Position numbers and translations under genes: made by a program | Shown here: positions 2,719 through 20,332 of the stretch, piece by piece | Position numbering within the stretch: position 1 is the stretch's first letter | Layout: each line of letters opens with the position of its first letter | The notes under the pieces: generated by a model | The model's input: the letters and a program-made list of their open reading frames with translations, nothing else | The model's database searches: none | Told to the model about the DNA's origin: nothing | From: a virus | Reading direction: 5' to 3' (one strand) | IMG/VR virus record: IMGVR_UViG_3300006037_000046 | Coordinates: 1 to 21,308 of that record | DNA length: 21,308 nt

Positions 2719-2722
2719 ATAA

Positions 2723-2757
2723 AAACCCTCGTATATATCAACAATCTACGAGGGTTT
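2723..2757 (-). terminator. Hairpin with U-tract overlapping the ribosome site of the putative terS
   Basis: The arms 2723-2733 and 2747-2757 are perfectly complementary over 11 bp around a 13-nt loop. On the minus strand the hairpin is followed by TTTTT and then the ATG at 2718, the layout of an intrinsic terminator. The 3' arm contains GAGGG, the only plausible Shine-Dalgarno for the next gene. It could terminate, attenuate, or mask translation. Confidence 0.75.
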
Positions 2758-2766
2758 GTGGTGCGT

Positions 2767-2777
2767 TTTGTTGGGTG
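2767..2777 (-). repeat. Boundary motif copy C (CACCCAACAAA)
   Basis: On the minus strand CACCCAACAAA lies 1 nt after the stop codon of the two-helix membrane protein and 9 nt before the hairpin. The same 11-mer occurs at 15681-15691 and 20313-20323, each between a stop codon and a hairpin. Function unknown. Confidence 0.7.
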
Positions 2778-2778
2778 T

Positions 2779-3036
2779 TTAATCTTTTGGTTTTTCACCA
2801 ATAACTTTTTTGCCTGAAGCATCAAAATAATATGGTTCGTATTCATTGATGCAGTTTTTATAAATCAAATAAATAGCTAAAGTAACAACAATAAGATTCC
2901 AAGGTGAAAGCCAATTAATATTAATGCTATTTCCCCACATAGTAAGAGCAGGCGCACCAAATAAAAACGCAATAATGCCAAGCGCCGGCACAATATCAAA
3001 ATAATAATATTTATCTTTGTATTTCCAGTTAATCAA
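2779..3036 (-). CDS. Small protein with two transmembrane helices, possible holin
   Basis: An 85-residue protein with two predicted membrane helices, about 13-34 (IVPALGIIAFLFGAPALTMW) and 44-60 (SPWNLIVVTLAIYLIYK), and a hydrophilic tail ending GEKPKD. Size and topology fit class II holins. The position next to the packaging genes recalls T7, where the holin gene lies between tail fibre and terminase genes. I see no holin family motif, so the role is inferred. The start is TTG (3036-3034), overlapping the TGA of the preceding gene, with GAGAGGG at 3044-3050 spaced 7 nt. The next in-frame ATG falls inside the first helix, which favours TTG. A membrane component of DNA ejection is an alternative. 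Confidence 0.55.
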   Translation of the reverse strand: MINWKYKDKYYYFDIVPALGIIAFLFGAPALTMWGNSININWLSPWNLIVVTLAIYLIYKNCINEYEPYYFDASGKKVIGEKPKD

Positions 3037-5567
3037 TCCACAACCCTCTCAAAATCAGGCGCCTGAATGTCACCCCAATCATCGCCTAGCCAACGCGTCC
3101 GACCGTGTTCATTTTCTGCTTTTTGTAGCAGCTTTTGACGGTAATCAGGTGCAATCATATCTTGAAATTCATCAAAAATTAAACGGTTTGTTGCAGCTTT
3201 TGTATACCACAAGTTTTGAGCAGGTATTTTTCCTTTCAAATATTTAAATGTTTCATTGCCTGCATTAGTGTCAATACCATTGGCTGCTTGAGTGGCGTTA
3301 CCTACTGTTAAATTTAATATGGTTTTGAAGTCCGAACCGAATGGCCCACCTAAAAAGTCGGTTGCATCACGACCACTGGTATCAGTACCAGCAACTAAAA
3401 TATCTCCCAAAACTGGCAAGCCACCACCTGCCACAAATGAGCGTTTGAAGAAATCTGAATCAATACCGGCTGTATACCATTTTTCACCATCCCACATTTC
3501 AGAAGGATCATTACCATTTACCAGCTCTTTTAACTGAACAACCAAACCGCCTAAAACTGTGGTCATAGCGATCAATGAAGCAGCATAAGTAGCTTTACCT
3601 TGTACTGTTTTCTGAGCCATTGCACGAGAACCATGACGCATTAAAAAGGCTGCCGAGAACGATTTAAATTGCAGCATGGATTTTACAATCTCACCCATAG
3701 CTGTTCCCTTTTTCATGCCAGGTGCCATGAATGTTCTTTCACGTAACCCAGCCTCAATTACAGCCATGCCTTGCTCATCTAACAAGTGGGCTTGAAAACT
3801 TGAAGCAACTTCATCTTTGACTTTTTGAGGGTCTCCAAACTTGGTTAATTGCTCATCTGGAATTTCATAGATAGATCGTGCTGACATCAACTGATTGCCC
3901 TTTCTATCAATCACAGGTTCAGCCAAGCGCATGACTTCCCACGCTCGTTCACTCAATCCTGTTTTTTCCATCATTTCACGGTCATTGGTATTCAATTCAG
4001 ACCATGCTTTATCACGGCTTAAACGTCCGTATTTCTCCATCAGCATTTTAGTAAAGCCAACTTTTGAAGCGGCTGTTAAAGCATTCAGTCCAGATACACG
4101 CATAACTTGAGATGCTATGCCACTCGACACACGTGCCAGTTTTTGCGACTTACCATGTACAGAAGTCAACCCATCATCAGCCCAACGATTGATAGAGCCG
4201 AGCATTTCCTCAGTGGCCAAACCTAAACTGTGTGCTAATTCCCGATCTTCTTTATTTTTTGGGTTTAACTGTGTGAGCAATTCACCGAATGTTTTACGAA
4301 AAGCAATATTGTGAATCGAAGCAGTTTTGGCAATCATAGCTTGATCTGTAATGCTTGATAGAGTTGTACCACCCAACATAGCTGCAACGTTCATAGAGCG
4401 ATACGCCAAGCCTAAATTGGCTAGCACTTCGGACTGTGGTGTATTCTGCCCTGTAAATTCATCAAACATCGTTTGTGCGCGTTTACGTGACTTTCCTGTG
4501 CTATTCGCATCTATACCTTTGAGCCAATCTTTATTTCCTGCTGCATCCATTAAAATACGCATGGCATTTTTAGGACTACTTCCAAGACTTTCTACAAGTG
4601 CAATATCTTTAGATAAGCCGTTTACGTGTGCTTCCACCAAGTCCACAAAAGGCATACCACCAAAATCAGATTGATAATCTAGCCAGGCATCAGCATCTTT
4701 AAAATGCAGCACACGACTTTCAGAATGACGGCTGGTTACTTTTGAATTGCCACCAAATGATTGACGACCTATTTCTGTTTTATTTGCGCCGTTACTTGTG
4801 AGCGTATCAAACGAGTATTCGAGTAAATCACGTATTTCTTGCTGTGAATAAAATGTACCATCTTCATGCACGTACTTTGATGTATCAATCAGATTCTCAG
4901 CTTTATCTACCCAAGCTTGTTTACCTGCTACTGCAATTTTTTCTAGGTTGTGCGTTTGCGGTAAACCCCAATCATCAAGCTTTCCAATATCACCGCCTGA
5001 TCGATTGAAGCGTTCACGCATCCCCTCAAATACATCGCCCATCTTGTCGGATATTTTTTTAGCCAAAGCATCGCCAGTATCTTGACCAAAGCGTTCACGT
5101 ACAATTTTTTGAACTAAATCCTTGTCAGTAAATACACCTAAGCCGCCTTTAATGTTGGTGTAGAAGTCAACCAAGTCACCACGGTAAATAGCTGCAATTG
5201 CACGTGCTTTTGAATCCAATGATTGAACTCCCGACATATCACCATGCGGTGCAACCATGCGGTCTACAACTTCACTGGCTGATAAAGTTGCATGGTCAAG
5301 CTGTGCCAAGTTTTTAGATTGAGTGAGAATGTCATGCGCTGCGATTTTATGCTTGCGTTTTAATTGCACTTGAATATCAATTGCAACCTGCTCACTGGCT
5401 TGTATCAGCTTTTCAGATTCAGATAAATTACGCCAAGCATCAAGGTCTTTTTTAGCCAAGGATTTCATCGCATCTTTAATGCGCTGTTCGATTTGCTTTG
5501 CTTCCTGTTGATTTAATGAAGCCTTGCCTAGTGCTTGCGCTACAGCTTGTTTGCATTGTTCTTTCAT
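3033..5567 (-). CDS. Large internal virion / DNA-ejection protein (844 aa)
   Basis: A large helical protein of a family often found beside polyvalent or transglycosylase ejection proteins in podoviruses and prophages; I recognise it by its C-terminus. Landmarks are a hydrophobic stretch at about 658-680 (YAASLIAMTTVLGGLVVQL), then NGNDP (684-688), GGGLPVLGDIL (714-724), DFLGGPFGSD (737-746) and NLWYTKAATNRLIFDE (785-800). The N-terminal 100 residues are a charged helix. No catalytic motif is visible. The ATG at 5567 follows the preceding stop by 3 nt, with GGAGAA just upstream, so the two are probably made together. The likely role is in the capsid core, being ejected to form or line the DNA conduit, like the C-terminal part of T7 gp16. 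Family recognition is moderate; the role is inferred. Confidence 0.65.
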   Translation of the reverse strand: MKEQCKQAVAQALGKASLNQQEAKQIEQRIKDAMKSLAKKDLDAWRNLSESEKLIQASEQVAIDIQVQLKRKHKIAAHDILTQSKNLAQLDHATLSASEVVDRMVAPHGDMSGVQSLDSKARAIAAIYRGDLVDFYTNIKGGLGVFTDKDLVQKIVRERFGQDTGDALAKKISDKMGDVFEGMRERFNRSGGDIGKLDDWGLPQTHNLEKIAVAGKQAWVDKAENLIDTSKYVHEDGTFYSQQEIRDLLEYSFDTLTSNGANKTEIGRQSFGGNSKVTSRHSESRVLHFKDADAWLDYQSDFGGMPFVDLVEAHVNGLSKDIALVESLGSSPKNAMRILMDAAGNKDWLKGIDANSTGKSRKRAQTMFDEFTGQNTPQSEVLANLGLAYRSMNVAAMLGGTTLSSITDQAMIAKTASIHNIAFRKTFGELLTQLNPKNKEDRELAHSLGLATEEMLGSINRWADDGLTSVHGKSQKLARVSSGIASQVMRVSGLNALTAASKVGFTKMLMEKYGRLSRDKAWSELNTNDREMMEKTGLSERAWEVMRLAEPVIDRKGNQLMSARSIYEIPDEQLTKFGDPQKVKDEVASSFQAHLLDEQGMAVIEAGLRERTFMAPGMKKGTAMGEIVKSMLQFKSFSAAFLMRHGSRAMAQKTVQGKATYAASLIAMTTVLGGLVVQLKELVNGNDPSEMWDGEKWYTAGIDSDFFKRSFVAGGGLPVLGDILVAGTDTSGRDATDFLGGPFGSDFKTILNLTVGNATQAANGIDTNAGNETFKYLKGKIPAQNLWYTKAATNRLIFDEFQDMIAPDYRQKLLQKAENEHGRTRWLGDDWGDIQAPDFERVVD

Positions 5568-5570
5568 TAA

Positions 5571-8500
5571 TTATTCTCCAAACTGTAAAGCACAGCTAAT
5601 TGCGGTTTGTGTGGCAAGTGTGTCTTGTTCCGCTTGTTTCGCTTCAGCTTCTAATTCATCCAAGCGTTCACGCAAAGTCATGGTAATTTCTTCTGCATTG
5701 CCATCAGGATCATAACGAGTCACACTGATATGCTGATCAGGATTTTGCATGATGGTATTCGCCACCGCATCTCCTTCCAAAACATCGTCAAACAACGAAG
5801 TCACGCGCACTTGCTCAGCCCCAAGCATGCTATCCATTACAGCAACAATGTCTTGTGATAACTCTGCTCTAGGCGTTTGCATGATTAATGATTGCAAAGT
5901 TTTATAGGCTTGTATCATCCAAGATTTAAACCGGTTAAACACATCTTTAAGCTCTGGCGTTGGTGCATTGCCAGAAGATAAATATTGCTCAAAAGTTTCG
6001 GCAAATTTCTCATGCAAGTTTAGTGACTGCTCAGGCGTTAAATCCTTAAATTTAGCACCAGATAACCCCGCCCAATCCATTACCACATCCATATCTTTGC
6101 TTAGGTTTTGCGGCAATGCCCCTTGCTCTTTAAGCTGCATGTGCATTTCTAAGAAATGATGCCCAAGCTCATGCACAAAGGTAGAGAAATCGGCATCTTT
6201 GTTTAGCGTAATTGTTGAGCCATCTTTAGCGGGGCTAAAAGTGATAGAGCCGCGCGTGCCGTCTTGATGCAAGGTTTTATCGGCAGACTCCCTGTACATT
6301 GTTTCCCATGTTTGGAATACCTTGTTTTTACCTTTATTCTCAACAAAACCAAACTTCTTATAAAACGCTTTTAGTTTTGAAACATTCCCGCCAAAATCAC
6401 CAGATGGCGTTAATGCAATATGCTTACTATTCGCATCGGCATAATCAATTAACTGCTGCATTAGGTTGCTACCTTTGCCTGTGCCGCGTTCGTTTTGCGA
6501 AACAACAATTTTGCTTAGGGTTATGATATCGCCGTTCTCATGCACTGATACTGCTACGCCTATTTCCTTGGCTTGCTTCTCAAAATCATCAAGACTTTGA
6601 ACGCCACTTTTGGACTGGTGATAAATATTCGGATTTTCAGCATCAACCTCTTGTCGCTCTAGGGTGCTTTGCTTGTAAGTAGAATTAGATTGATCTAAAT
6701 CTGCAATCCGCATCGGAAAGCGTGCAAAAAGCTCATCCGCCGTGATGCCCATTTTTTTAGCTGTAGAGTGATAAACACTTGCGGCAACTTTTGCAGCATC
6801 GTTGATATAATCAGCACCGTATTTGCTTGAGTTGCTGAGCATTTCAACAATTTGATCTTGTACCGATTTTACCTGTGTTAATTCTTCACCAAACAAGCTC
6901 CCCTGTCTTGGGTCGCCCATGCTGTCAATTTCATCAATCTTGCTTTGAATATGCTCGCCAATAGCTTTGACACTGCGTTTATTGGCATCAAATACGTTTA
7001 AGAAATCACGTGCGCCTACGCTCAAACCGTCATCAATTAACTGACCTTGATCTAAATAATCACGTACTGTTTGACCACTGGCTTTAATATCACTCAATTT
7101 TTGCGCTGCTTGTGCCAAGTCTGTTGCAATCGTATTGGCATGCCGACCACCCTGCTTGACCAGTCCGCCAAGTTGCGACAATTGCGGCGATGCACGTAGT
7201 AAAGCATTCAAAACATTCTTACTGTCATCGTCCAAATTCTCAGACAATCGAGCAACCAAATTACCGTCGCCATAAGTATTTTGCGCCAAAGCGGTTTCAA
7301 TGCGGCGTTTACCATCTTGAGACAATCGACCGTCAGGTGTTTGCATATTTGCACGTTCTGACTGCGGCAATTGGTCAATAAATCCACGTACAAAGCCCAT
7401 GCTTTGATCAAGATTGATTGAGCCATCATTATTCACATTGATAAGTGAGGCATCGGGTAAGCGGTCAACATCGGTTTTAGCACGCTCAGGTGCGCTGAAT
7501 TGCGCTACATCAGCTTCATTGGCTAACTTGGTGAATTGCACACGGTCAGTATCAGTTAAGCGTGTACGCACTAATACAGGCTGATCTATGCCTGAAATAT
7601 CCATGCCACGAGTTGCAGCATAGTCATTGACCATTTTTAAGTATGCATCCGCCTTGCCCTCTGCATAGGCTTTGCCAATCGCCAATGTGCGACCGTTGCC
7701 CGATTCAACCACACCATCCAAACCTATAATTGGCGCACCATCGGATAATTTAGGCGAATCTGCTAACCATTCAGGGCGTAGATCATTTGCCATACTTTCA
7801 ATCTGCTGGCGTGACGCTGCACGTGTACGGTCACGTGGCTGTAGCTCTGCTGGATAATTAGGATTCACCCCATAGAGCGCATCGTTGGACGTAATCAATT
7901 CAGACAGTGGACGTATTTCTGCTGCCACATCATAACTTGAGCCGTCCATGCCAACGGCTGTACTTGTTCCATTACCGCCATAACGCGAGCTTAAACTATT
8001 CCACTTAGTTTGCCATTTACCGATCGCTTGCCCCACCGTTAAGCCAGACATGCCGTTATTGTTCACAATGGCATTGGCATTCTCAGAATCGTATTTGCGC
8101 ACAACATCAATCAGTCGTGCATTAGGATCAGCCTTTAAAACTTTTGCTGCCACCCCTGGTCCAAGTAAGTGACCCAAATATTGTTCATGCGCTACTGGTT
8201 CACGTCCAAGACTTTTACGCATAGATGCATTGGCATTCTTAATATGTTTTAAGCCCTGTTTAATTTGCTCATCCACATTGGTTCGATCACCGCCGCCTTG
8301 ACCTTTCCAAGTTTTATTGAGAATTTGAAATAATCCATGCGCTGTTGATGTTGGATTTTTAGCTGTATGACTAAATGAACCGCCTGTTTCAATATGACTA
8401 ATCGTTAATGCAACACTTGGGTCTATACCCTCTTGCTGTGCTTTACGTGCAATTGTTTTTGCATTGGTCGGTAAAGCCATAGATTCATAATTTACAGGCT

Positions 8501-9545
8501 TTTGCTTTTCTTCACCTTTGACTTCATGAATCACATTCACTGGTCGTCCAGCTTTCAGGTTTTCTGTGGCATGGTTTAGGTTTTTAAGATGGTTATTTTG
8601 CTGCACTGGGGCGGCTGACTTTACAGGACTTGCAGCATCGTCAAATTCCATCCGATTGACTGCCAGCGCACTTTGCACCACCGTTGCTTTCTGATCTACA
8701 TCCTTATTTAATGTCTCAAGTTCTTGCTGAATTTGCTTATCCGCATAATGCGAATAGCCACGTGCTGCACCAAACAACAAGGCATTTAATGCAAGGTCAG
8801 TTCCAATACTTTGACCAGTGACTTGATACTCTTTGGCTTGTTTGTCGTAACCCCCTGATTGAAGTATTCCCCCGCTTGCCGCTTGCCCTGCGGTGGATAA
8901 AGCAGTTGCGCCACCAATCGATAAAGCGGCATCTTTTGCTACACCACCAACACCTTTTAAGCCGTATGAAATCGGCAATACCGTTGATACCGCAGCAACA
9001 CCACCATCCACCAAAGCCACCTTTGCAGCCGTGCCGCTATCCACGCCTTTATTGGTCAAGTCAGTGTATTTATAATTGGTTTCGGACGTGCCTGTTAATG
9101 CGGCCGATCCAACTACGCCACCGCCCAAACTACCAATTAACGCACGAGTTGCATAATCACCAACACCAAAGCCAATCTGACCTATAGTGCCTGTGTTCTG
9201 CTTATCCTCTAATTTCTCAACTGCGCCCAGAATAAGCTCATTTCGAGCATCATCCTTTCGATCTAAATACTCACCTGGACTTTCTTTTCGCACATCCAAT
9301 GGCTTAGAAAAATCATCTTCATCATTGATTGAATAAGTTAAGTGATCAATAACACGGTCAATCGGTGCTGCCAATGTATCCGCCGCTTTAGCAAAGCCTG
9401 CCGCTGCACCACGCAAAGGACTTGAAGCTGCACCATCAAACAAGCCAACTTCTTTTTTAACAGGCGGCATCTGTTTAAGCGGCTTCTTCTGCAATTCTTC
9501 AATTGCTAAGGTTTCATCATCGGCAAAGTCATTAAACCAAGTCAT
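5571..9545 (-). CDS. Polyvalent virion protein: transglycosylase + ddrB/ParB-like + GNAT-like + metallopeptidase
   Basis: A 1324-residue protein where T7-like phages place gp16. Residues 120-260 are Gly/Ala-rich and hydrophobic, perhaps membrane-active. Residues 360-495 are a lytic transglycosylase fold with catalytic glutamate E386 (HIETGGSF), then HGLFQI. Residues 556-700 match the ddrB-like ParB domain (YPAELQPRDRTRAAS; SDGAPIIG; VVESGNGRTLA). Residues 975-1085 look like a GNAT acetyltransferase, with NERGTGKGSNLM and FYKKFGF. Residues 1120-1190 are a zinc metallopeptidase, HELGH at 1125-1129, with E1183 (FAETFEQYL) a possible third ligand. A charged helix closes the protein. The ATG at 9545 overlaps the preceding TGA (ATGA); an upstream TTG is disfavoured. 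The virion probably delivers it, to open peptidoglycan and then act on host targets; this is inference. Confidence 0.85.
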   Translation of the reverse strand: MTWFNDFADDETLAIEELQKKPLKQMPPVKKEVGLFDGAASSPLRGAAAGFAKAADTLAAPIDRVIDHLTYSINDEDDFSKPLDVRKESPGEYLDRKDDARNELILGAVEKLEDKQNTGTIGQIGFGVGDYATRALIGSLGGGVVGSAALTGTSETNYKYTDLTNKGVDSGTAAKVALVDGGVAAVSTVLPISYGLKGVGGVAKDAALSIGGATALSTAGQAASGGILQSGGYDKQAKEYQVTGQSIGTDLALNALLFGAARGYSHYADKQIQQELETLNKDVDQKATVVQSALAVNRMEFDDAASPVKSAAPVQQNNHLKNLNHATENLKAGRPVNVIHEVKGEEKQKPVNYESMALPTNAKTIARKAQQEGIDPSVALTISHIETGGSFSHTAKNPTSTAHGLFQILNKTWKGQGGGDRTNVDEQIKQGLKHIKNANASMRKSLGREPVAHEQYLGHLLGPGVAAKVLKADPNARLIDVVRKYDSENANAIVNNNGMSGLTVGQAIGKWQTKWNSLSSRYGGNGTSTAVGMDGSSYDVAAEIRPLSELITSNDALYGVNPNYPAELQPRDRTRAASRQQIESMANDLRPEWLADSPKLSDGAPIIGLDGVVESGNGRTLAIGKAYAEGKADAYLKMVNDYAATRGMDISGIDQPVLVRTRLTDTDRVQFTKLANEADVAQFSAPERAKTDVDRLPDASLINVNNDGSINLDQSMGFVRGFIDQLPQSERANMQTPDGRLSQDGKRRIETALAQNTYGDGNLVARLSENLDDDSKNVLNALLRASPQLSQLGGLVKQGGRHANTIATDLAQAAQKLSDIKASGQTVRDYLDQGQLIDDGLSVGARDFLNVFDANKRSVKAIGEHIQSKIDEIDSMGDPRQGSLFGEELTQVKSVQDQIVEMLSNSSKYGADYINDAAKVAASVYHSTAKKMGITADELFARFPMRIADLDQSNSTYKQSTLERQEVDAENPNIYHQSKSGVQSLDDFEKQAKEIGVAVSVHENGDIITLSKIVVSQNERGTGKGSNLMQQLIDYADANSKHIALTPSGDFGGNVSKLKAFYKKFGFVENKGKNKVFQTWETMYRESADKTLHQDGTRGSITFSPAKDGSTITLNKDADFSTFVHELGHHFLEMHMQLKEQGALPQNLSKDMDVVMDWAGLSGAKFKDLTPEQSLNLHEKFAETFEQYLSSGNAPTPELKDVFNRFKSWMIQAYKTLQSLIMQTPRAELSQDIVAVMDSMLGAEQVRVTSLFDDVLEGDAVANTIMQNPDQHISVTRYDPDGNAEEITMTLRERLDELEAEAKQAEQDTLATQTAISCALQFGE

Positions 9546-12545: not shown

Positions 12546-12997
12546 GCTTTTAACTCCAAATCCAAAACAGTGCCGTATTGCTTAAACCCAAAACTTTCAT
12601 ACAGTCGAACGCATGATTGAGATTCAACACCAGTCGTTGTACCGCATTGGATACGACTTGCCCCCATAGCAGCCGCCCAACCAATGAACGCCTGAATAAG
12701 CATCTGTGCTGCACGTGATTTACGATACTCAGGAACGACATACAACACATCATCAAAAGCAATCTTGATGTCATTGAACCAATCACCACCGATACGGCCA
12801 ACAAAACCGCCAATGATCTGCTCATTTAGTTCAACTAGAAAGATCACCCCGCCGCCTTTGATCAAGTAAGTGAAATGCTTGGCTGCATTTTCCGCAAGAT
12901 ATGGACGGTTTTGATAATTAGGGGCTTCTTTTATAAACTCACTCCCCAATTCAACCATGACAGAAACATCGGAAAGTGTTGCTGCACGTATTTTCAT
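12542..12997 (-). CDS. GNAT-family N-acetyltransferase
   Basis: A complete 151-residue GNAT domain. MKIRAATLSDVSVMVELGSEF (1-21, cited in part) is the usual first strand and helix. Motif A runs DVLYVVPEYRKSRAAQMLI (83-101), where RKSRAA occupies the acetyl-CoA pyrophosphate loop, though it lacks the canonical glycines. Motif B is LYESFGFKQYG (132-142). The substrate is unknown. Stand-alone GNAT genes occur among podoviral tail genes, and their purpose there is unsettled. The start lies 2 nt after the tail tubular protein B stop, and the end overlaps the cupin-like gene, so all three are probably translated together. The missing glycines in the pyrophosphate loop could mean altered cofactor binding. 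Confidence 0.85.
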   Translation of the reverse strand: MKIRAATLSDVSVMVELGSEFIKEAPNYQNRPYLAENAAKHFTYLIKGGGVIFLVELNEQIIGGFVGRIGGDWFNDIKIAFDDVLYVVPEYRKSRAAQMLIQAFIGWAAAMGASRIQCGTTTGVESQSCVRLYESFGFKQYGTVLDLELKA

Positions 12998-12999
12998 GG

Positions 13000-15069
13000 C
13001 TATTTCTCATTGATTGACAATTGCATAGTGATAGCTTGCAAGTGAAACGGCAGAGGTTTGTTGTGTGAAATGATTAACGGCATTTTATGCAAATCCTCCC
13101 AATGCCCTCCCTCGTGTAAATGATAGCCAGTGTGCGGCTTTCTTGGGTCGAGTGGATTATCGTCAAAAGTAAACAGTTCAATCATTTCACCGTTGATTTC
13201 AGGGGCAATCGTCTTATTAAAAAAGAATGCGATTCGATCAATTTTTGCTTTGTGCATCATTGTAGATAACGGTGCTTGAGTTAGCTCAGGTGGGAAAAGC
13301 TCAACGATGCATTCGATAGTTTCACCAAAGCTAATCTCTTGACCTGCCACGTCTTGAAACGTCATTGTCGAGCCGTTATCTACAAATCCAATCTCATAAA
13401 TAGCTTCACCCTCTAGCTGATAAACCGCAATATCACTAAGGTAAGGCGCACCCTTACTCACAGTGTTTGTGAGTGGTGTAATATTGCGCTGTGAATCAGT
13501 GTATGCGTCGAAAGATAGCTCTTCCAAGCAAACTGCGGTGTTACGCTTAATCAGCATAAATGAACGATCTGCACCGAGTTGCGTAGGCATTGAACACATG
13601 CTCTTTACTTCGCCACCAAAATCATGCTGCGCCCATGCAACTACTTCTTGATCACGATTGAACGTTATTGATGCAACCCTACCATCGCCAAGAACACACC
13701 AAACCAAGTTTTCAGGCTCTTGCTGATATGAGATTTCATTCACACCTTTGTGTAATTCACCAATATGAGAGGACAAAGAACTGATTTCAGGAGAAACTAA
13801 TCCATCGACTTCAAAGCGATATGTCAAAGCACGTACACGTTCACCGCCACGCTGCACGAATAGCAACTCATTACCGACTCGTTCAGGGCGCGTAATAGGA
13901 TAAACACCGTATGCACTATGCTCATTGATGTTTACTGTTGTCGGCGTTAATGCGCCATCGGAATCAACCATGTATTCACCGCCTGACGTTAAACAAACCA
14001 CGCCACGCTGTGCCTCCAAGAATAAAATGCTATTAGCTAATCCTGAAGCTGAAACGATACTAAATGCATCTGCATCTTCTGTGGTTTCAAGAAAATCACC
14101 ATTATTACCAACTGCACTAAACCAAATTTTATTAGGCGCTTTCTTGGTATTTGCTATAACTAATCGTTGTTTATAGAACGTACAGCAACGTGGATACCCA
14201 TTTTCAGCATTAAAAGCTGGTGGAATAATTCCCCAAGAGCGTTCGATTGCCAAAATATCAGCATCTAATTTTCTAAGAATCTCCCCTTGCACCTCATCAG
14301 CATTAATAAATTTAGTAATTCGCAGTATGCCGCCATTCACTTCAATGTAATTGCCTACATCTGCCGCTGAAAATACAGCACTTGTTTCCGCAGTTGTTAA
14401 TATCCAGTCTAACGTTTCTGTGTCGGGTTGCTTATTGGTATTACCACGCAATGCTTGATAATACGCCCCCAAATATGCAACAACATCACCTGTCAAATAC
14501 ACTTGTATGTTGTCCCAATCACTTGTTGCATTTAATTTAAATGAAATAAAAGCCCCTAAATCCTTGCCCGACGGCTTGCCTTTTCGGAATGGATAACGCG
14601 CACTCTCTGAATCTGTAGGTGCATGTGTGTATGCAAATTGATTGATCTGCCAATCTGCAAAACTAGGATTACAAGAAACTTTCTGCACGGGTAAATCGCT
14701 ATGCGTCATGAACATTTCATAGCGATATTGTACAAACTGAATGTCAGAGATTTGTTCATCGGTATAAGGTGTCACAACGGATGCAATGATTAAGTTGGTT
14801 CGGGGATTAAAGACTTCTAACAGCAACGGCTTCAAAATTAGCATGAATGAACTTTCAGAATTCACAATGAATGGAATGATGCGCACCGCCCCTGCTTGCT
14901 CACTTAAAAACAAAGTACCTGGTCTTTTTCGCACCCCACCCTCAACCAATGGAATTACATTTTTTAAGGTCTTTGCACCATTGCCATATTGCTGAATATC
15001 AGTACGTGTATACAGTGCTGGAGCTAACTCCCCCGCACTGAAATTATTCTTCATGATGAACTGTTTCAT
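13000..15069 (-). CDS. Tail tubular protein B (T7 gp12-like nozzle)
   Basis: A 689-residue protein with the family's N-terminal signature: NFSAGELAPALYTR (9-22), YGNGAKTLKNVIPLVEGG (28-45) and RKRPGTLFL (47-55). The central region has the beta-propeller type repeats of gp12, for example RLVIANTKKAPNKIWFS and LLFVQRGGERVRALTY. In the virion six copies form the tail nozzle below the gp11 ring, closing the channel and carrying the tailspikes. The start overlaps the previous stop as TAATG; an in-frame ATG five codons later (MKNNFSAGEL) is a plausible alternative. The length is somewhat under T7 gp12 (794). Confident assignment. Confidence 0.92.
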   Translation of the reverse strand: MKQFIMKNNFSAGELAPALYTRTDIQQYGNGAKTLKNVIPLVEGGVRKRPGTLFLSEQAGAVRIIPFIVNSESSFMLILKPLLLEVFNPRTNLIIASVVTPYTDEQISDIQFVQYRYEMFMTHSDLPVQKVSCNPSFADWQINQFAYTHAPTDSESARYPFRKGKPSGKDLGAFISFKLNATSDWDNIQVYLTGDVVAYLGAYYQALRGNTNKQPDTETLDWILTTAETSAVFSAADVGNYIEVNGGILRITKFINADEVQGEILRKLDADILAIERSWGIIPPAFNAENGYPRCCTFYKQRLVIANTKKAPNKIWFSAVGNNGDFLETTEDADAFSIVSASGLANSILFLEAQRGVVCLTSGGEYMVDSDGALTPTTVNINEHSAYGVYPITRPERVGNELLFVQRGGERVRALTYRFEVDGLVSPEISSLSSHIGELHKGVNEISYQQEPENLVWCVLGDGRVASITFNRDQEVVAWAQHDFGGEVKSMCSMPTQLGADRSFMLIKRNTAVCLEELSFDAYTDSQRNITPLTNTVSKGAPYLSDIAVYQLEGEAIYEIGFVDNGSTMTFQDVAGQEISFGETIECIVELFPPELTQAPLSTMMHKAKIDRIAFFFNKTIAPEINGEMIELFTFDDNPLDPRKPHTGYHLHEGGHWEDLHKMPLIISHNKPLPFHLQAITMQLSINEK

Positions 15070-15632
15070 TAGTTGCGCACCGTCATAAGAGTTGGAACAT
15101 AATCAGCGACAAAGTCTTGCGCTGGACGCTCTTGACCGTTGATAGCGCGTGCTTGCTTCAATAGATTTTGAAGTTTTTGCCATGCACTATCTGCTTCGGT
15201 TTGGCTGCCTGTGATTGGCTTTGCGAGTTTATGAACCAAGTACAACGCCATGCACTCACAAAATAATGAATCCCAAGTCTGTTCGTTATCATTGTCTGAA
15301 ACGTAGACTAAGTTGATCAAATTCGAATTTGCTAGAATATGCCGACCCTCTACTTCGTAAAACTCTTGCCCTGTGTCAATCACTCGTAGGAAATCGTTAG
15401 GCAATGGAAATGCGTGTGAATAGCCAAATGATGGATGCGTCACCACTGGAGCAAGCTGCTCACGTTTACGAGCAAATGACCATGGGTGCATACGCAACAA
15501 TGCTTTACGTGATGAGTCGTAAACCGAAGCACAACGACGTGCATTTTCTGTGTTGTCATCAAAGGATTGAATCGTTTTAGCACCGATCATGCTCAGCGCT
15601 TCATTGCAGATAGATATGCTTGTAGTTGTCAT
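15069..15632 (-). CDS. Tail tubular protein A (T7 gp11-like gatekeeper)
   Basis: A 187-residue protein of the gp11 family: ICNEALSMIGAKTIQSFDD (8-26), then ARRCASVYDSSRKALLRMHPW (31-51, cited in part), LAPVVTHPSFGYSHAFPLP (60-78) and DFLRVID (80-86). It forms the ring joining the portal to the tail nozzle. I set the start at the ATG 15632-15630, preceded by GAGGG at 8 nt. A longer reading from a TTG at 15647 would begin inside a hairpin arm and lack a ribosome site. The hairpin at 15636-15671 covers that GAGGG, so this first gene of the tail module may be regulated at initiation as well as by termination. Stop and next start overlap as TAATG. Confidence 0.92.
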   Translation of the reverse strand: MTTTSISICNEALSMIGAKTIQSFDDNTENARRCASVYDSSRKALLRMHPWSFARKREQLAPVVTHPSFGYSHAFPLPNDFLRVIDTGQEFYEVEGRHILANSNLINLVYVSDNDNEQTWDSLFCECMALYLVHKLAKPITGSQTEADSAWQKLQNLLKQARAINGQERPAQDFVADYVPTLMTVRN

Positions 15633-15635
15633 AGA

Positions 15636-15671
15636 AAAAGCCCTCAAGTTTTAATGATCTTGAAGGCTTTT
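15636..15671 (-). terminator. Hairpin with U-tract before the tail module
   Basis: The arms 15636-15648 and 15659-15671 pair over 13 positions around a 10-nt loop. The one imperfect position is G-U on the minus-strand RNA but C-A on the plus strand, so the structure serves leftward transcripts. On the minus strand UUUUU follows GAGGGC, then the ATG at 15632. The GAGGG is also the ribosome site of tail tubular protein A. Confidence 0.8.
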
Positions 15672-15680
15672 AAGGTTAGG

Positions 15681-15691
15681 TTTGTTGGGTG
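15681..15691 (-). repeat. Boundary motif copy B (CACCCAACAAA)
   Basis: On the minus strand CACCCAACAAA directly abuts the TAA of the Gp49-like gene and continues ACC, ending 9 nt before the hairpin. It is identical over 11 nt to copies at 2767-2777 and 20313-20323. Function unknown. Confidence 0.7.
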
Positions 15692-15919
15692 TTAGCCACG
15701 GAACAAGCGATAGCCTTCCAATTCCCACAATTTGTTTTCTGCAGTTTTTAAAGCGTCCTTGGATGCGTACCCAATACCAAGCTCTTTGCTAAAATTTTCA
15801 GGATTAACTGCTTTTGACATTGCCGTTGCTAGATGAAAGGACCCATCAAGCCATGCATCCGCGCGAACGTATTTAGTCGGTGTTTCACCAAAAGTAAAAT
15901 GCAATTGCACGCGGGCCAA
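15692..15919 (-). CDS. Gp49-like (N4 Gp49 / Sf6 gene 66 family) protein, start uncertain
   Basis: A 75-residue reading whose C-terminal half matches the phage Gp49 family as I know it: VNPENFSKELGIGYASKDAL followed by ENKLWELEGYRL. The family's function is unknown. The start shown is TTG (15919-15917) with AAGGA (15924-15928) 4 nt upstream. The reading frame stays open 16 codons further, to 15967, and those codons read EKAVAPKVTPEQIKEL, which resembles the usual family N-terminus. That stretch has no ATG, GTG or TTG and is closed by a TAA at 15970-15968. The ancestral start therefore seems lost, and the protein is either shortened or begins at a non-standard codon such as the ATT in this extension. 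It follows the capsid gene and is the last gene of the head module. Confidence 0.6.
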   Translation of the reverse strand: MARVQLHFTFGETPTKYVRADAWLDGSFHLATAMSKAVNPENFSKELGIGYASKDALKTAENKLWELEGYRLFRG

Positions 15920-15972
15920 TAATTCCTTAATTTGTTCCGGTGTGACTTTTGGTGCTACTGCTTTCTCTTAAA

Positions 15973-16003
15973 GACCTCACACCCTGCTCAGAGGTGTGAA
16001 GCC
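15973..16003 (-). terminator. Hairpin after the major capsid gene
   Basis: The arms 15993-16003 and 15973-15983 pair over 11 positions around a 9-nt loop on the minus-strand RNA, using two G-U pairs that would be C-A mismatches on the plus strand. UUUAAG follows. The hairpin begins 11 nt after the capsid stop codon. It is a weak terminator, attenuator or RNA-stability element that could lower downstream expression relative to capsid. Confidence 0.65.
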
Positions 16004-16014
16004 AAAGTTGACTG

Positions 16015-16914
16015 TTAGACTACAAAATCAATCGCAACCACTTTGGTTTCATTAGCACGACCCGCACCAAACGAATGAACACCACCAACCTGCTTCATGT
16101 TCTTTTTGTCTGGACGCGTACTGATGTCAAAGCCTGTAATATCTGCATCACCAAAATGCACCGCCGAACCACAATATGCAACGGTACGACGCTCAGTAGC
16201 ACCAGCTGCACCATTGTTTAATTTTTGGTAAGGAATCCAGTTAAAGCCTAACCATTTACCACCGACACCACCTTCTTGCAGCATTTTCCCTGCCATAAAA
16301 TCAGCGGATGTGAGCGTGGTATCACCTAAGATTTTCTCAAGCATTACATCGGTGTAAAGGATGTATAGCTGCTCACCGTTATGCTCATCATTTTCAGTTT
16401 TGCGGAAAATTGATTTAGCTTTTACAAGTTGCTGCTTCAATGTGCCGAAGGCGGATAGAATGATTTGACCTGCGGGCAATACAACTGCCGACGTAGAAGA
16501 TACGCCTGCATCATCAACCACTTTACGGCTTACCGAACCAACTGCCGCTTGATAAATAATATCGTCAATTTTACGACCACGTGCACCCAGCAAAAGCTTC
16601 ATGTATTTATCTTGTGGATTGGCTTTTAACTTCGGAACATCACGCGGTTCAATCGGGATAAATAGATCAAAGTCATTCATTAAGACCGAGCGCATACCTG
16701 CATCTGGAATCGTCCAAGTCGTGTTGCCCATACGAGCACCTGACGCTGACATTTCCACTTGACCCATATCATTGATGGTAAAAGACTCACCAGTGATTTT
16801 ACCGCGATTTACAACTGTTTTAAGTAAGCGAGATTCATTCTGTGCTGACGCAATCTCATAAGTGTCATGAAACTGCTGAACAAACGCTGCTGTGATTTTG
16901 TTTTCGTTAGCCAT
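16015..16914 (-). CDS. Major capsid protein
   Basis: A 299-residue protein consistent with the podoviral capsid family often listed as Phage_capsid_2. Recognisable parts are ITAAFVQQFHDTYE (7-20), MRSVLMNDFDLFIPIEP (74-90) followed by RDVPKLKANPQDKYMK, then GRKIDDIIYQAAVGS, which lie where the HK97-fold long helix is expected. The C-terminal half contains ILYTDVMLEKILGD and FNWIPYQKL. It directly follows the scaffold gene, and its AAGGGGAT ribosome site gives a strong start at 16914. A hairpin directly downstream may let it be made in excess over tail proteins. No decoration domain is visible. Position and family features agree. Confidence 0.88.
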   Translation of the reverse strand: MANENKITAAFVQQFHDTYEIASAQNESRLLKTVVNRGKITGESFTINDMGQVEMSASGARMGNTTWTIPDAGMRSVLMNDFDLFIPIEPRDVPKLKANPQDKYMKLLLGARGRKIDDIIYQAAVGSVSRKVVDDAGVSSTSAVVLPAGQIILSAFGTLKQQLVKAKSIFRKTENDEHNGEQLYILYTDVMLEKILGDTTLTSADFMAGKMLQEGGVGGKWLGFNWIPYQKLNNGAAGATERRTVAYCGSAVHFGDADITGFDISTRPDKKNMKQVGGVHSFGAGRANETKVVAIDFVV

Positions 16915-16925
16915 GTGCTATCCCC

Positions 16926-17591
16926 TTATTTGTATGTTTTGCTGTAGTAGCGTTCAACTTGCGCCGACACAGACTTATGATCTGGGTGCTTATCGTTTAA
17001 ATAAGCTTCCGATGCCATCAATGATTGAACATCTACAGTTCCGCTTTGTTGGGTATTTGAGGGGGGCGTATCTTCACTCAACTGCTGCCCAAAATATGCC
17101 GCCATTTTCAAGACCAGTGGATTATTACCAAACTCAGGGCTATTCACTTCTTCCGCAGTTAAAATGCCGTTCTGAATTGCGCTGTTTGCAGCTGCTTGTG
17201 CAAATCCGAAATTAGTATCTGTATCTGCACCCCACGTTTCTTTCATTGCAGCCACACAGCCTTCGGTGTCTAAAGCTGCATTGCCCTCCATGATTGCAGG
17301 TAGCAACTGGCTGTATTCGCCCAATAAGAAGTTCAAACTCTTACTATCAAGCCCTGCTTCACGTGCACGTTCTAAAAACTCTTGATTTTCAGGAATAGCC
17401 TTAAACTCGTCATAGTTAAAGCCTTCCACGTTGACTTCATAGCCATCGATAGAATCGGGAACGGCTGCTACTGGTGCAGGTGTGTCAAGTGGCGGTTCAT
17501 CACCTAGTGGAGTTGGTTCAGGCGGTGTAGCAAGTAAACTGTTTGGTGTTGGTTCTTCATTTGGTACTGGTGTATTTGCTTGTTCAGTCAT
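16926..17591 (-). CDS. Scaffolding / capsid assembly protein
   Basis: A 221-residue acidic protein in the standard place between portal and capsid genes. Residues 1-50 are Pro/Thr/Glu-rich and probably disordered. Residues 58-175 are helical, with ENQEFLERAREAGL and QAAANSAIQNGIL. The C-terminus SEAYLNDKHPDHKSVSAQ, ending YYSKTYK, has the form often seen at scaffold C-termini, a basic tail that binds capsid subunits. It guides assembly of the procapsid and leaves before DNA is packaged. The ATG overlaps the end of the preceding gene by 8 nt, and AAGGA lies 8 nt upstream. The downstream gap to the capsid gene is 11 nt. No protease motif is visible. Confidence 0.83.
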   Translation of the reverse strand: MTEQANTPVPNEEPTPNSLLATPPEPTPLGDEPPLDTPAPVAAVPDSIDGYEVNVEGFNYDEFKAIPENQEFLERAREAGLDSKSLNFLLGEYSQLLPAIMEGNAALDTEGCVAAMKETWGADTDTNFGFAQAAANSAIQNGILTAEEVNSPEFGNNPLVLKMAAYFGQQLSEDTPPSNTQQSGTVDVQSLMASEAYLNDKHPDHKSVSAQVERYYSKTYK

Positions 17592-18057
17592 TTACTTCTT
17601 CCTTATAACTTGGGTCATTCGCCCGATTAATGTTGTTTACGATGAAATTAACAACGCTCTGCTGCCCCAATCGGTGGCATGTTTCACGCTCTGAATCTGT
17701 GAATGCATCACGACAAAATACTTGCGTTAGATGCTCTAAAATGCGGTTGCCGTTAATATCGAGATCAAAGACATTGCGGTATGTTTCTGCTGTTGCTTTA
17801 GTCACTCGATGCCGCCTGACATAGTTGCCTTGCTCTTGCTCCCCACTGGATTCATCAACCAGTGTTGGCTGTTGCAGTTCATCAAGCTGTTCTTGAAGTT
17901 GAATGCTTAATTGCGTGAAATGATCTAAATCTTGCTGAGCATCAAAATGCAGTCGTGTTTCATCCCAATATTTGACTTCCCAATCATTAATTTTGTGTTG
18001 TTGCCGAACAATCAAAACAAAGGCAACAAACAACATAAAAATAAGGAAATAAATCAT
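17584..18057 (-). CDS. Bbp19-like protein with N-terminal membrane anchor and coiled coil
   Basis: A 157-residue protein in two parts. Residues 2-17 (IYFLIFMLFVAFVLIV) are a clear membrane helix, followed by a probable coiled coil (20-63, heptad-like SIQLQEQLDELQQ). Residues 93-145 (YRNVFDLDINGNRILEHL, then RLGQQSVVNFIVNNIN) match the Bbp19-like domain known from Bordetella phage BPP-1 and commonly encoded just after the portal gene; its function is unknown. A linker at 64-92 is polar. The start overlaps the portal stop as ATGA, and the end overlaps the scaffold gene. Membrane anchoring is unusual for this family as I know it. An i-spanin-like fold is possible for the N-terminal half, but gene position argues for a head-assembly role. 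Confidence 0.68.
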   Translation of the reverse strand: MIYFLIFMLFVAFVLIVRQQHKINDWEVKYWDETRLHFDAQQDLDHFTQLSIQLQEQLDELQQPTLVDESSGEQEQGNYVRRHRVTKATAETYRNVFDLDINGNRILEHLTQVFCRDAFTDSERETCHRLGQQSVVNFIVNNINRANDPSYKEEVND

Positions 18058-19688
18058 TGCATGGTCTCCGTTGCCATTTGATTCTCAATACCTTTAGCAA
18101 CTGCACCACCAGCCATTTCCATCATTGCTTGCTGTTGCTGTGCTTGCTTCGCTTCGGCTTGAGCTCTTTCACGCGCTTGACGTAGTTCTTGAACTTCTTG
18201 AGCTGTACGCATGATGTTTTGTGGAACACCACGACCATTACCAACAAACACGGCTACAGCATCAAAATCCACATTGTCTAAAATGGTTTGATCAACTTGT
18301 GCAAACTGAGAAAGACTCATGACGTATTGTTCTGTTGCAGTGACTTCTTCCATTCGTTGTGAGCGTGCCATTGGTGATACAAACTTAAATGAGAGATTGC
18401 TACCCAGTAGTTCTTCGGGCGGTTGCCCTAAAGCACCTGAACGCAATGCCAAGCCGAAACAGCGGTCAAGAATGGATTGCAAGTATTCAGTTTGTAGTCG
18501 TCCGTACATGGGTCCAAGCATCTGACGAATCAGTTCAACGCGTGTATGAATCTCTGTTGCCGTCATTTGCTGTGTGCCAATATTCGGCAATTGATCAGCC
18601 ATCAATTTGCGACGAATGCCGCCTTGAATGTTGGTGAGTAGATAATCTGCGATTTGGAAATTAGTACCGTCATCCAAACGCTTCATTGAATCAACGCTAT
18701 TCGCCACGATGACTTTACGTGGGCCAATACGCACCGTATGCGGATTTAATACGCCATCATCTTCTGCAATCCACATGCCGCCAAGTTGTAAATCTGCAGA
18801 ACGAACTGTGTTTTTCATCAATTCATTCGCCATCTTTGCATCAGGCAATGCAATCGTCATTTGACCGTTGCCATAAACAGAATTTGGCAATCGACGCAAC
18901 CGTGGCACTGAACAAGGGAACTCGTGATAACCCGATTCTTTTAAGATGTGATTGTTATTGATGTCGATATGATATGAAGCAAACGGCATTGCCTTATTAA
19001 TCTGCCCTGAACCCACCTGTTTTCGTGGTTGAATGACGTGAAGCAGCTTCATCTTGTCATCGGGTGACGTTTTGGCTTTCTCAATCACACTATGATGACA
19101 ATTGTTTTCACCGTATGTATTGATCATCGCTTCTACAGTCATTTCATGTTCACGATAAATCGTGTCAATGCGACCATCAGCGCGTGTTGAGCCAATGAAG
19201 CAATTGCCTATATGCCAAGACTCGAACACATAACCGCCACCTGCTTCACGGTCAATATCGGTGTAAAGCACACCCCAACCAGCCGCAACAATGTCCGTCA
19301 CAGTTTCAAAACTTTCGCTGTCAAAATTCGCAGCATGAATATTGCGCCACATGAATTGCGCTGCATCTTCCAGCCATCGCTCTCCATCTGTTAAAACGGA
19401 TAAATCATCCACACCATCAGGTTGAGCTTTGAACCAAATCGCATTTGCTGGCGTTACACCGTTCATGATCATAGACACAAGCACTTGCAATGCATCAGAT
19501 GCGGTTGAATCATATAAATCTGTTCGCTCTGTTTCACGCTGTGACTTCACATCTGAATCAGAACTAAAGTTTTGTTGACGCTCAGGCGCACCGTATTTGT
19601 AGCAATCTGCCCAATGCGATTCATACTGACTTCGCGCTGACTTGAGTTGATTTAATCGTGCACAAAACTTACGAGCGTCATAGTTCAT
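18054..19688 (-). CDS. Portal protein (T7 gp8-like head-tail connector)
   Basis: A 544-residue protein of the podoviral head-tail connector family. Typical features are SQYESHWADCYKYGAPERQQ (19-38), TDLYDSTASDALQVLVS (56-72), GVTPANAIWF, GWGVLYTDIDREAGGG and a C-terminal Gln/Ala-rich helix (ARERAQAEAKQAQQQQAM). Twelve copies would form the ring through which DNA enters and leaves the capsid; it binds the terminase during packaging and tail tubular protein A later. Its length matches T7 gp8 (536). The start overlaps the preceding stop as TAATG and the end overlaps the Bbp19-like gene as ATGA, so the head genes are tightly coupled. Confident. Confidence 0.93.
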   Translation of the reverse strand: MNYDARKFCARLNQLKSARSQYESHWADCYKYGAPERQQNFSSDSDVKSQRETERTDLYDSTASDALQVLVSMIMNGVTPANAIWFKAQPDGVDDLSVLTDGERWLEDAAQFMWRNIHAANFDSESFETVTDIVAAGWGVLYTDIDREAGGGYVFESWHIGNCFIGSTRADGRIDTIYREHEMTVEAMINTYGENNCHHSVIEKAKTSPDDKMKLLHVIQPRKQVGSGQINKAMPFASYHIDINNNHILKESGYHEFPCSVPRLRRLPNSVYGNGQMTIALPDAKMANELMKNTVRSADLQLGGMWIAEDDGVLNPHTVRIGPRKVIVANSVDSMKRLDDGTNFQIADYLLTNIQGGIRRKLMADQLPNIGTQQMTATEIHTRVELIRQMLGPMYGRLQTEYLQSILDRCFGLALRSGALGQPPEELLGSNLSFKFVSPMARSQRMEEVTATEQYVMSLSQFAQVDQTILDNVDFDAVAVFVGNGRGVPQNIMRTAQEVQELRQARERAQAEAKQAQQQQAMMEMAGGAVAKGIENQMATETMQ

Positions 19689-19930
19689 TAGCCACCACCG
19701 AGTTTTGATTTGCCTGTTAAGCGACCTAGAATTTCATTTTTATCGCCCATTTTTTGCCAAACACTCCCGCCTTGTTCATCTTTCGGCATCAGTGCTGTAG
19801 CTGTACTACTTGAGCCAATACCGCCACGCCGCATAGACTTCTTCACATTTGCTTCGGCGGCAGCTTTTTCAGCAGCTCGGCGAGCATCCCCTTCAGGGTC
19901 TTGCTGTACAACTTTAGGTTTGCCGCACAT
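19688..19930 (-). CDS. Small phage protein before the portal gene, function unknown
   Basis: An 80-residue protein reading MCGKPKVVQQDPEGDARRAA, then a short Ala/Glu/Lys helix, SMRRGGIGSSSTATAL and KNEILGRLTGKSKLGGG. Small proteins with this layout (CG-PKV start, charged helix, Arg/Ser-rich middle, Gly-rich end) occur just upstream of portal genes in related podoviruses; I know of no defined role. I chose the ATG at 19930 because GAGG lies 9 nt upstream and the ATG follows the preceding TGA by one base. A GTG at 19966 would add 12 residues inside the neighbouring gene and is disfavoured. The stop overlaps the portal start as TAATG. A minor head component is possible. Confidence 0.65.
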   Translation of the reverse strand: MCGKPKVVQQDPEGDARRAAEKAAAEANVKKSMRRGGIGSSSTATALMPKDEQGGSVWQKMGDKNEILGRLTGKSKLGGG

Positions 19931-19931
19931 A

Positions 19932-20249
19932 TCAGTATTCCTCAGAAGTCCAGCCGTGTTCGCCACAAACTTGACGAGTGCGTTTAGTTGCTACAGCTTG
20001 ATCTGCATCTTTCATCACAGGTTCAGGATTGGCTAACTGCCCTTTGTTTTTGCGCCACTCAAGAAACTCTGCATATTCCTTTTGAGCATCTGCATCACTT
20101 GGAGTTTCGAGCGTAGCTGTTTGTGTTGTATCTGCCGCAGTGCTTACAGATTGATCTGCCGCATCGGGCACTTGTTGGTTGTCCGTTGGTGTTTCGGTAG
20201 GTTTGGCTGCTTCGGGTGCGCCTGGTGTTTTTGTTTGACGTGCTGCCAT
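19932..20249 (-). CDS. Ala/Thr/Pro-rich acidic protein of unknown function
   Basis: A 105-residue protein I do not recognise. Residues 1-55 are Ala/Thr/Pro/Asp/Gln-rich and probably disordered (for example TETPTDNQQVPDAADQSVST). Residues 56-75 (AQKEYAEFLEWRKNKGQ) form a short amphipathic helix. The C-terminus RQVCGEHGWTSEEY has a lone Cys and His. It opens the head module: its ATG at 20249 is preceded by AGGG at 8 nt, which lies in the 3' arm of the hairpin at 20256-20288. One base separates its TGA from the next start. Possible roles are a scaffold-like or head-assembly accessory protein, with no direct support. Confidence 0.65.
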   Translation of the reverse strand: MAARQTKTPGAPEAAKPTETPTDNQQVPDAADQSVSTAADTTQTATLETPSDADAQKEYAEFLEWRKNKGQLANPEPVMKDADQAVATKRTRQVCGEHGWTSEEY

Positions 20250-20255
20250 AAGAAA

Positions 20256-20288
20256 AGCCCTATTCAGTGGTAAATGGTGAATAGGGCT
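20256..20288 (-). terminator. Hairpin with U-tract before the head module
   Basis: The arms 20256-20266 and 20278-20288 are perfectly complementary over 11 bp with an 11-nt loop. On the minus strand the hairpin is followed by a U-rich run (TTTTCTT once the last paired base is counted) and then the ATG at 20249. The 3' arm contains the AGGG serving as ribosome site of the next gene. This is the first of three such cassettes in transcription order. Confidence 0.78.
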
Positions 20289-20312
20289 AGTGTTGATGTC
20301 TATGTATTGCGG

Positions 20313-20323
20313 TTTGTTGGGTG
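20313..20323 (-). repeat. Boundary motif copy A (CACCCAACAAA)
   Basis: On the minus strand CACCCAACAAA, continuing CC, lies 9 nt after the stop codon of the helix-turn-helix gene and 24 nt before the hairpin. It is identical over 11 nt to copies at 15681-15691 and 2767-2777. Function unknown. Confidence 0.7.
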
Positions 20324-20332
20324 AATGTGATG

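What the first reader, a model, noticed from the sequence alone, without database searches (positions are those of the whole stretch)
2719..20332. Three matching boundary cassettes (stop, CACCCAACAAA, hairpin, ATG) split the late operon into functional modules
The 11-mer CACCCAACAAA (minus strand) occurs at 20313-20323, 15681-15691 and 2767-2777; I noticed no other copy by eye. Each copy lies 0-9 nt after a stop codon and 9-24 nt before an 11-13 bp hairpin that ends in a U-run and a start codon. The hairpin sequences differ, so the layout is conserved rather than one recently copied block. The three sites fall between regulator and head genes, head and tail genes, and ejection and packaging genes, while genes inside modules mostly overlap. 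Possible meanings are a phage-specific antitermination or processing signal (motif plus hairpin, as in nut sites), a Rho or S1 loading site (C-rich, G-poor), or linker sequences that promote module exchange by recombination.
Basis: partly seen in the sequence, partly recalled or inferred. Interest (0 to 1): 0.78.

Follow-up and report, generated by a model that had tools for sequence, protein, structure and literature searches.

The report
Tagged terminators fencing phage accessory genes
A family of Acinetobacter phages repeats one short sequence tag followed by a transcription-stop hairpin at every point of the virion-gene operon where a swappable accessory gene sits, so the hairpins probably fence those genes off from the virion genes; what reads the tag is unknown.

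Summary
CACCCAACAAA occurs exactly three times in the window, always on the late-gene strand, followed by a hairpin, U-run and ATG; shuffles give none. Relatives show five equivalent sites, not three: A (start of head module), B (capsid/tail), C (before small terminase), D (between ejection genes) and E (tail spike/lysis). The degenerate box [CT]AC[CTA]CAACAAA plus a terminator-type hairpin occurs 119 times on the late strand of 43 phage sequences, and never on the other strand or with scrambled boxes. Hairpins covary at each site. Upstream sequence is unrelated from phage to phage (about 45 gene families, including acyltransferases, EpsG and SieB) right up to the stop codon; conservation starts at the box. 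Box and hairpin are gained and lost together at D. The scaffold-gene copy of the 11-mer is a protein-coding coincidence.

Best reading: a composite element, sequence tag plus intrinsic terminator, closing accessory-gene slots in the late operon. Late transcription must then pass up to six terminators, so antitermination is inferred. What the tag does is not shown. Exchange of cassettes between sites, and a ribosome-standby role, are poorly supported. The same element also occurs in some Acinetobacter siphophages.

The parts
20313..20323 (-). Site A box CACCCAACAAA, 9 nt after the stop codon (20333-20335) of the HTH regulator gene
   Evidence: conserved at 24-nt spacing from the hairpin in 39 of 45 distinct site-A elements
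20289..20312 (-). Site A spacer, 24 nt, C/A-rich and nearly G-free
20253..20288 (-). Site A terminator hairpin AGCCCTATTCA/TGAATAGGGCT with U-run; AGGG in the 3' arm lies at Shine-Dalgarno distance from ATG 20249
   Evidence: covariation in relatives
19932..20249 (-). First late gene (105 aa, unknown), downstream of site A
   Evidence: homologues in 21 of 25 relatives
15681..15691 (-). Site B box, directly after stop codon TAA 15692-15694
   Evidence: box within 3 mismatches in 39 of 40 orthologous junctions
15635..15671 (-). Site B terminator hairpin AAAAGCCTTCAAG/CTTGAGGGCTTTT with U-run; start ATG of the tail gene at 15632
   Evidence: covariation
15692..15919 (-). Accessory gene in slot B (75 aa, N4 Gp49/Sf6 gene 66 family PF13876)
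   Evidence: position empty or filled by other genes in relatives
15968..16014 (-). Region of the first terminator (T1) right after the capsid stop codon (CACACC...GGTGTG); no box
   Evidence: sequence; T1 without box in 23 relatives
2767..2777 (-). Site C box, 1 nt after stop codon TAA 2779-2781
2721..2757 (-). Site C terminator hairpin AAACCCTCGTA/TACGAGGGTTT with U-run; ATG of the putative small terminase gene at 2718
2779..3036 (-). Accessory gene in slot C (85 aa by the listed TTG start, membrane-like)
   Evidence: replaced by other genes or absent in relatives
5567..5574 (-). Site D position (end of the 1334-aa ORF, start of the 844-aa gene): bare here, 3 nt apart, with no box and no hairpin
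20333..20758 (-). HTH-type regulator (141 aa); with CI the only non-structural family found in all 25 near-complete relatives; candidate late regulator
   Evidence: predicted structure too poor to use

Best explanation
Each site is one composite cis-element: a box (consensus YACHCAACAAA, usually CACCCAACAAA), a G-poor C/A-rich unstructured spacer of site-specific length, and an intrinsic terminator. At sites A-D the descending arm of the terminator also carries the Shine-Dalgarno sequence of the next virion gene. It closes a slot in the late operon where accessory genes (such as SieB, acyltransferase and EpsG genes) come and go. Proposed working: in the lysogen, and early in infection, the terminator keeps transcripts of the slot gene, or of the regulator region at site A, from running into virion genes. 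During lytic growth RNA polymerase must be made termination-resistant to cross up to six such terminators. The box is a sequence-specific recognition site, most likely read in the nascent RNA, that conditions the terminator next to it. Shown: the composite element, its conservation, its late-strand restriction, its coupling to hairpins, and variable cargo upstream. Inferred: that the hairpins terminate, antitermination, and a factor reading the box. The factor is unidentified; the 141-aa HTH protein is the only phage-borne candidate by distribution.
For: 74 exact copies in 30 of 32 related records, all on one strand per genome, 0 reversed-control copies. Degenerate box: 119 late-strand copies with a terminator, 0 on the other strand, 0 for scrambled boxes. 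98 of 153 strong late-strand terminators have a box within 40 nt, against 3 of 86 on the other strand. Orthologous junctions ascertained without the motif: site B 39 of 40 within 3 mismatches; at site D box and hairpin occur together and the bare junctions have neither. Stems change on both sides while staying paired. Upstream similarity is at background (0.25-0.35) to about 5 nt before the box; about 50 upstream families, including SieB, Acyl_transf_3 and EpsG. Empty B slots have two terminators in a 104-nt gap before an essential tail gene, which argues for antitermination. The box is more degenerate in empty slots (stratified permutation p 0.003). 14 of 16 Acinetobacter genome hits are full elements, control 0.
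Against: No transcript data: termination, readthrough and antitermination are unmeasured. The terminator right after the capsid gene has no box yet must also be crossed, so the box is needed neither for terminators in general nor for crossing them. The spacing between box and hairpin differs between sites (24 versus 7-13 nt). A relative of the HTH protein occurs in a Yersinia phage without the box. Accessory genes do not systematically carry a recognisable promoter. The empty-slot test is not corrected for phylogeny.
Confidence: 0.5

Rival explanations
1. Local antitermination site (nut- or put-like): a phage or host protein binds the box in the nascent RNA and lets polymerase cross the adjacent hairpin during lytic growth.
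For: Late-operon restriction, sense-strand only, box always 5' of the terminator; up to six terminators in series; a conserved regulator gene just upstream of site A, the place held by Q in lambdoid-type temperate podoviruses such as YA3 (PMC7326022).
Against: Known nut sites act once and processively, whereas here every slot terminator has its own box. T1 after capsid has none. No boxA or boxB resemblance was demonstrated. Spacing is variable.
Confidence: 0.2
2. Recombination linker: the shared box and hairpin promote exchange of gene modules.
For: Upstream genes change with breaks at the box edge; for example two site-D loci regain identity 4 nt before the box. A few slots have a box-like copy on the 5' side too.
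Against: Only one weak cross-site similarity was found among upstream regions of 118 sites. A 5' box copy is no commoner than expected except in three related phages. Breaks at the edge of a functional element are expected from selection alone.
Confidence: 0.1
3. Translation control: the box and G-poor spacer form a ribosome standby site, next to a hairpin that hides the Shine-Dalgarno sequence.
For: At sites A-D the Shine-Dalgarno sequence lies in the 3' arm and the start codon follows the U-run; the leader is nearly G-free.
Against: At site E the box is kept although an unmasked Shine-Dalgarno sequence and start codon lie well beyond the terminator. The bare D junction uses an ordinary Shine-Dalgarno sequence.
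Confidence: 0.1
4. 3'-UTR signal of the accessory mRNA (for example Hfq or another RNA chaperone binding to the box plus the U-tail), stabilising the transcript or releasing a small RNA.
For: The box directly follows the stop codon of about 45 different genes and decays when the slot is empty; it contains AACAAA upstream of a U-tailed hairpin.
Against: It is still recognisable in empty slots. Ordinary Hfq sites do not need a fixed 11-mer. No Rfam family matches.
Confidence: 0.1

Closest known systems
PeSLs (promoter early stem-loops) of T4-type phages
   Same: Repeated composite intergenic element with a terminator stem-loop, tied to gene shuffling (described second-hand in PMC4503421; original papers not held)
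   Different: PeSLs contain an early promoter. No promoter-like site was predicted inside the three elements here; here a non-promoter box precedes the hairpin and the element lies in the late operon
Start-associated sequences (SAS/ESAS) of Cluster K mycobacteriophages
   Same: Short, one-orientation, phage-group-specific repeat before gene starts, with inverted repeats at some sites, attached to different gene families, function unknown (PMC3203893)
   Different: SAS is GGGATAGGAGCCC, 3-7 nt from the start codon, in non-structural regions, and its inverted repeats do not covary. Here the box is roughly 60-75 nt from the start, the hairpins covary, and the sites lie among virion genes
Morons (accessory genes with their own transcription signals in temperate phages)
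   Same: Variable accessory genes, including lysogenic-conversion and exclusion types, inserted between late genes and closed by a terminator
   Different: A common sequence tag precedes the terminator at all slots; dedicated promoters were not seen systematically
T7 terminator after the capsid gene (Tphi) [own knowledge]
   Same: Terminator between capsid and tail genes; T1 here holds that position
   Different: Site B adds a second, boxed terminator after an accessory slot; relatives are integrase/CI-bearing temperate phages whose two annotated genomes list no phage RNA polymerase
Lambda nut / Q-type antitermination
   Same: Late genes behind terminators; regulator gene just upstream of the late operon
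   Different: No boxA or boxB found; a tag at each terminator; regulator not homologous to Q by the searches made

Membership tests
Intrinsic (Rho-independent) terminator | GC-rich stem followed directly by a U-run | tested here: met
   family-wide
Intrinsic (Rho-independent) terminator | Transcripts end at the U-run in vivo or in vitro | not testable with these tools
   no RNA data available
PeSL of T4-type phages | Early promoter within the element | tested here: not met
   no sigma-70-like site within the three elements
SAS/ESAS | GGGATAGGAGCCC 3-7 nt before the start codon | tested here: not met
   different sequence and distance (searches compared with PMC3203893)
Moron | Accessory gene present in some relatives and absent in others at the same junction | tested here: met
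Moron | Own promoter upstream of the accessory gene | tested here: inconclusive
   TATAAT-like leader in several D slots, nothing systematic at B or C
nut-type antitermination site | boxA-like sequence plus a small boxB hairpin bound by an N-like protein | tested here: inconclusive
   hairpins are terminators with long loops and U-runs; sequence resemblance to boxA judged by eye only, protein binding not testable
Q-type late antitermination | Q homologue upstream of the late operon | tested here: not met
   the regulator matches no Pfam family and only an unknown PHROG and a weak repressor PHROG

The most novel reading that the evidence does not exclude
The box is a previously undescribed sequence-specific signal that conditions individual intrinsic terminators (on in lysogeny, crossed in lytic growth), read by an unidentified phage or Acinetobacter factor and shared by at least two unrelated phage types, so that accessory genes can be slotted into a virion operon without disturbing it.
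Probability: 0.3. Interest if true: 0.8.

Novelty: new variant of a known kind. Interest (0 to 1): 0.6.

Why it matters
Temperate phages carry accessory genes inside operons of essential virion genes; how the two are kept apart and how such genes are swapped safely is mostly inferred from single cases. Here one short tag plus terminator marks the same five slots across dozens of phages, giving a ready handle for finding accessory-gene slots in Acinetobacter phages and a testable signal for conditional termination. If the tag is read by a factor, that would be a new local termination or antitermination signal.

Tried and rejected
Scaffold-gene copy of the 11-mer about 131 nt before the capsid start: rejected as an element because codons vary synonymously around a conserved NTQQ peptide. 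Rfam: no match. AlphaFold model of the regulator: mean pLDDT 57.6, so no fold search was made. MAFFT-based covariation for sites B and E: alignments out of register (in 62 the +1 slide fits better than the structure I named), so stems were counted from the terminator base instead. Promoter search at slot starts: nothing systematic. Both-sided box flanks as a sign of cassette insertion: only three related phages. Literature: the 11-mer appears in 16 papers; the 5 listed are unrelated to phages; no paper on TPWB-05; PeSL originals not held. Complementarity of ACCCAACA to a universal 16S rRNA stretch was considered from memory and not pursued, because box position 4 varies.
Full report
WHAT WAS CHECKED. 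The 11-mer CACCCAACAAA occurs exactly three times in the window, all on the minus (late-gene) strand, and never in 100 shuffles. The anatomy is as described: stop codon, 0-9 nt, box, 9 or 24 nt, a stem of 11-13 bp, U-run, ATG. Each hairpin folds well below its shuffles (z -6.6, -4.8, -4.1). The built-in terminator scan missed them because it allows loops of 3-8 nt.

WHERE IT IS. The window is a 21.3-kb virus record with virion genes of a T7-like podovirus layout: portal-type head-tail adaptor, major head protein, two tail proteins, internal virion proteins, large terminase. Its nearest annotated relatives are Acinetobacter phages TPWB-05 and MD-2021a and 'Alcaligenes' phage Piluca. TPWB-05 and Piluca carry CI-type repressors and Piluca an integrase. 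A relative with 93% capsid identity lies in an Acinetobacter chromosome contig, so this is a temperate family.

HOW GENERAL IT IS. In 32 related records the exact box occurs 74 times, on one strand in each genome, with 0 copies of the reversed control. Reading the sites gives five site types. A lies before the first head-module gene, B between capsid and tail, C before the small terminase position, D between two internal virion genes, E after the tail spike and before lysis genes. Allowing three variable positions, box plus terminator occurs 119 times on the late strand of 43 sequences and never on the other strand or for the control patterns. In 119 Acinetobacter genomes 17 matches of box plus TTTTNATG were found against 0 controls; of 16 distinct ones 14 are full elements. 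Among strong late-strand terminators 98 of 153 have the box within 40 nt, against 3 of 86 on the opposite strand; 23 of the late ones without a box are the terminator right after the capsid gene.

IS THE BOX SELECTED? Junctions chosen by the downstream gene, not by the motif, give the unbiased answer. At site B 39 of 40 have the box within 3 mismatches; the exception is Yersinia phage YeP5. At site D some phages have directly abutting or overlapping genes with neither box nor hairpin (the window is one), and those with the hairpin have a box-like sequence (one with 4 mismatches); box and hairpin come and go as a unit. Spacers diverge in sequence but keep a length typical of each site (A: 24 nt in 39 of 45) and are G-poor (5% G, 42% C). 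Stems are conserved by pairing: several positions hold three or four different pair types at orthologous sites. Those stems were picked for complementarity, so the informative part is the double changes, not the percentage paired.

WHAT LIES UPSTREAM. Identity is at background until about 5 nt before the box, where the stop codon lies, and then jumps (box identity there is partly by selection). About 50 unrelated upstream families were found over about 100 sites; at B, C and D the slot can also be empty. Identified cargo includes acyltransferases and EpsG-type membrane proteins at E and SieB at D, which are typical lysogen-expressed functions. The box is on average more degenerate in empty slots (1.5, 1.5 and 2.0 mismatches against 0.8, 0.8 and 1.15; stratified permutation p 0.003, no phylogenetic correction).

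FALSE LEADS REMOVED. Many relatives carry the 11-mer inside the scaffold gene before the capsid start. There the peptide NTQQ is conserved but its codons vary freely (ACC 18, ACA 17, ACT 3), so it is coding coincidence.

MECHANISM. Shown: a composite box-plus-hairpin element, late-strand specific, closing variable slots. Inferred: the hairpins terminate, because they have the canonical form. In empty B slots two such hairpins stand in a 104-nt gap before an essential tail gene, and G012, for example, has boxes at all five sites plus T1, so late transcription must be termination-resistant. The box most likely serves as a recognition site conditioning its terminator; whether it helps termination or readthrough is open. 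Only two non-structural families are present in all 25 near-complete genomes, CI and the HTH protein encoded just upstream of site A in this window. The second is the natural phage-borne candidate, but a diverged short relative occurs in YeP5, which has no box, so a host factor is equally possible.

RIVALS. Ribosome standby is disfavoured because site E keeps the box although the start codon and its own Shine-Dalgarno sequence lie well beyond the hairpin. A recombination linker between sites is disfavoured because only one weak cross-site similarity was found among 118 upstream regions. A nut-like local antitermination site and a 3'-UTR function remain possible.

BEYOND THE FAMILY. An unrelated Acinetobacter tailed-phage group (major tail protein phrog_158) carries the same arrangement: L121 with the exact box, and L506-L508 with a box variant and a hairpin almost identical to the site-E one. 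The element therefore moves between phage types or answers to a host factor.

KNOWN THINGS. Closest are PeSLs of T4-type phages (known here only second-hand) and SAS/ESAS of Cluster K mycobacteriophages. Both are repeated intergenic elements at gene borders; neither has this box, this order, or this late-operon location, and this element fails a tested defining feature of both. Literature searches turned up no description of this motif in phages, within the open-licence library only.

Noticed in passing
L121:267-330; L506:7237, L507:7283, L508:7238: Box plus hairpin also in an unrelated Acinetobacter phage group, upstream of a slot before its major tail protein gene; in L121 the slot holds a Rha-like regulator. 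The L506-L508 hairpin nearly equals the podovirus site-E hairpin.
   Followed up: partly
L513, L521-L524 and relatives, just before the major tail protein gene: That tailed-phage group has its own recurrent terminators ending in TTTTTTTATGCC before the major tail protein, after variable genes, mostly without the box: possibly a parallel slot design.
   Followed up: no
site D cargo starts in G004, G008, G009, G013, G017, G018, G019, G029, W01: Several site-D accessory genes share a leader of about 80 nt with a TATAAT-like start and a conserved hairpin (AAGGCATTTAACCTGAATGCTTTCC), which may be their promoter and 5' UTR.
   Followed up: partly
window 20333-20758: 141-aa HTH protein with a basic, almost invariant N-terminal stretch (SPRARARF...TKKKVK); present in all 25 near-complete relatives; candidate late regulator with no Pfam match.
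   Followed up: partly
L039 (Alcaligenes phage Piluca): Recorded host is Alcaligenes faecalis, but its site A-C sequences are nearly identical to those of Acinetobacter phages; the host assignment deserves a check.
   Followed up: no
G095 contig C1, about 0.995-1.018 Mb and 1.076-1.096 Mb: One Acinetobacter chromosome carries two sets of these elements about 80 kb apart, apparently two related prophages with the same site-E element.
   Followed up: no
G031 contigs C88, C131, C143: Several complete elements on different contigs of one draft genome, suggesting more than one such prophage or remnant.
   Followed up: no
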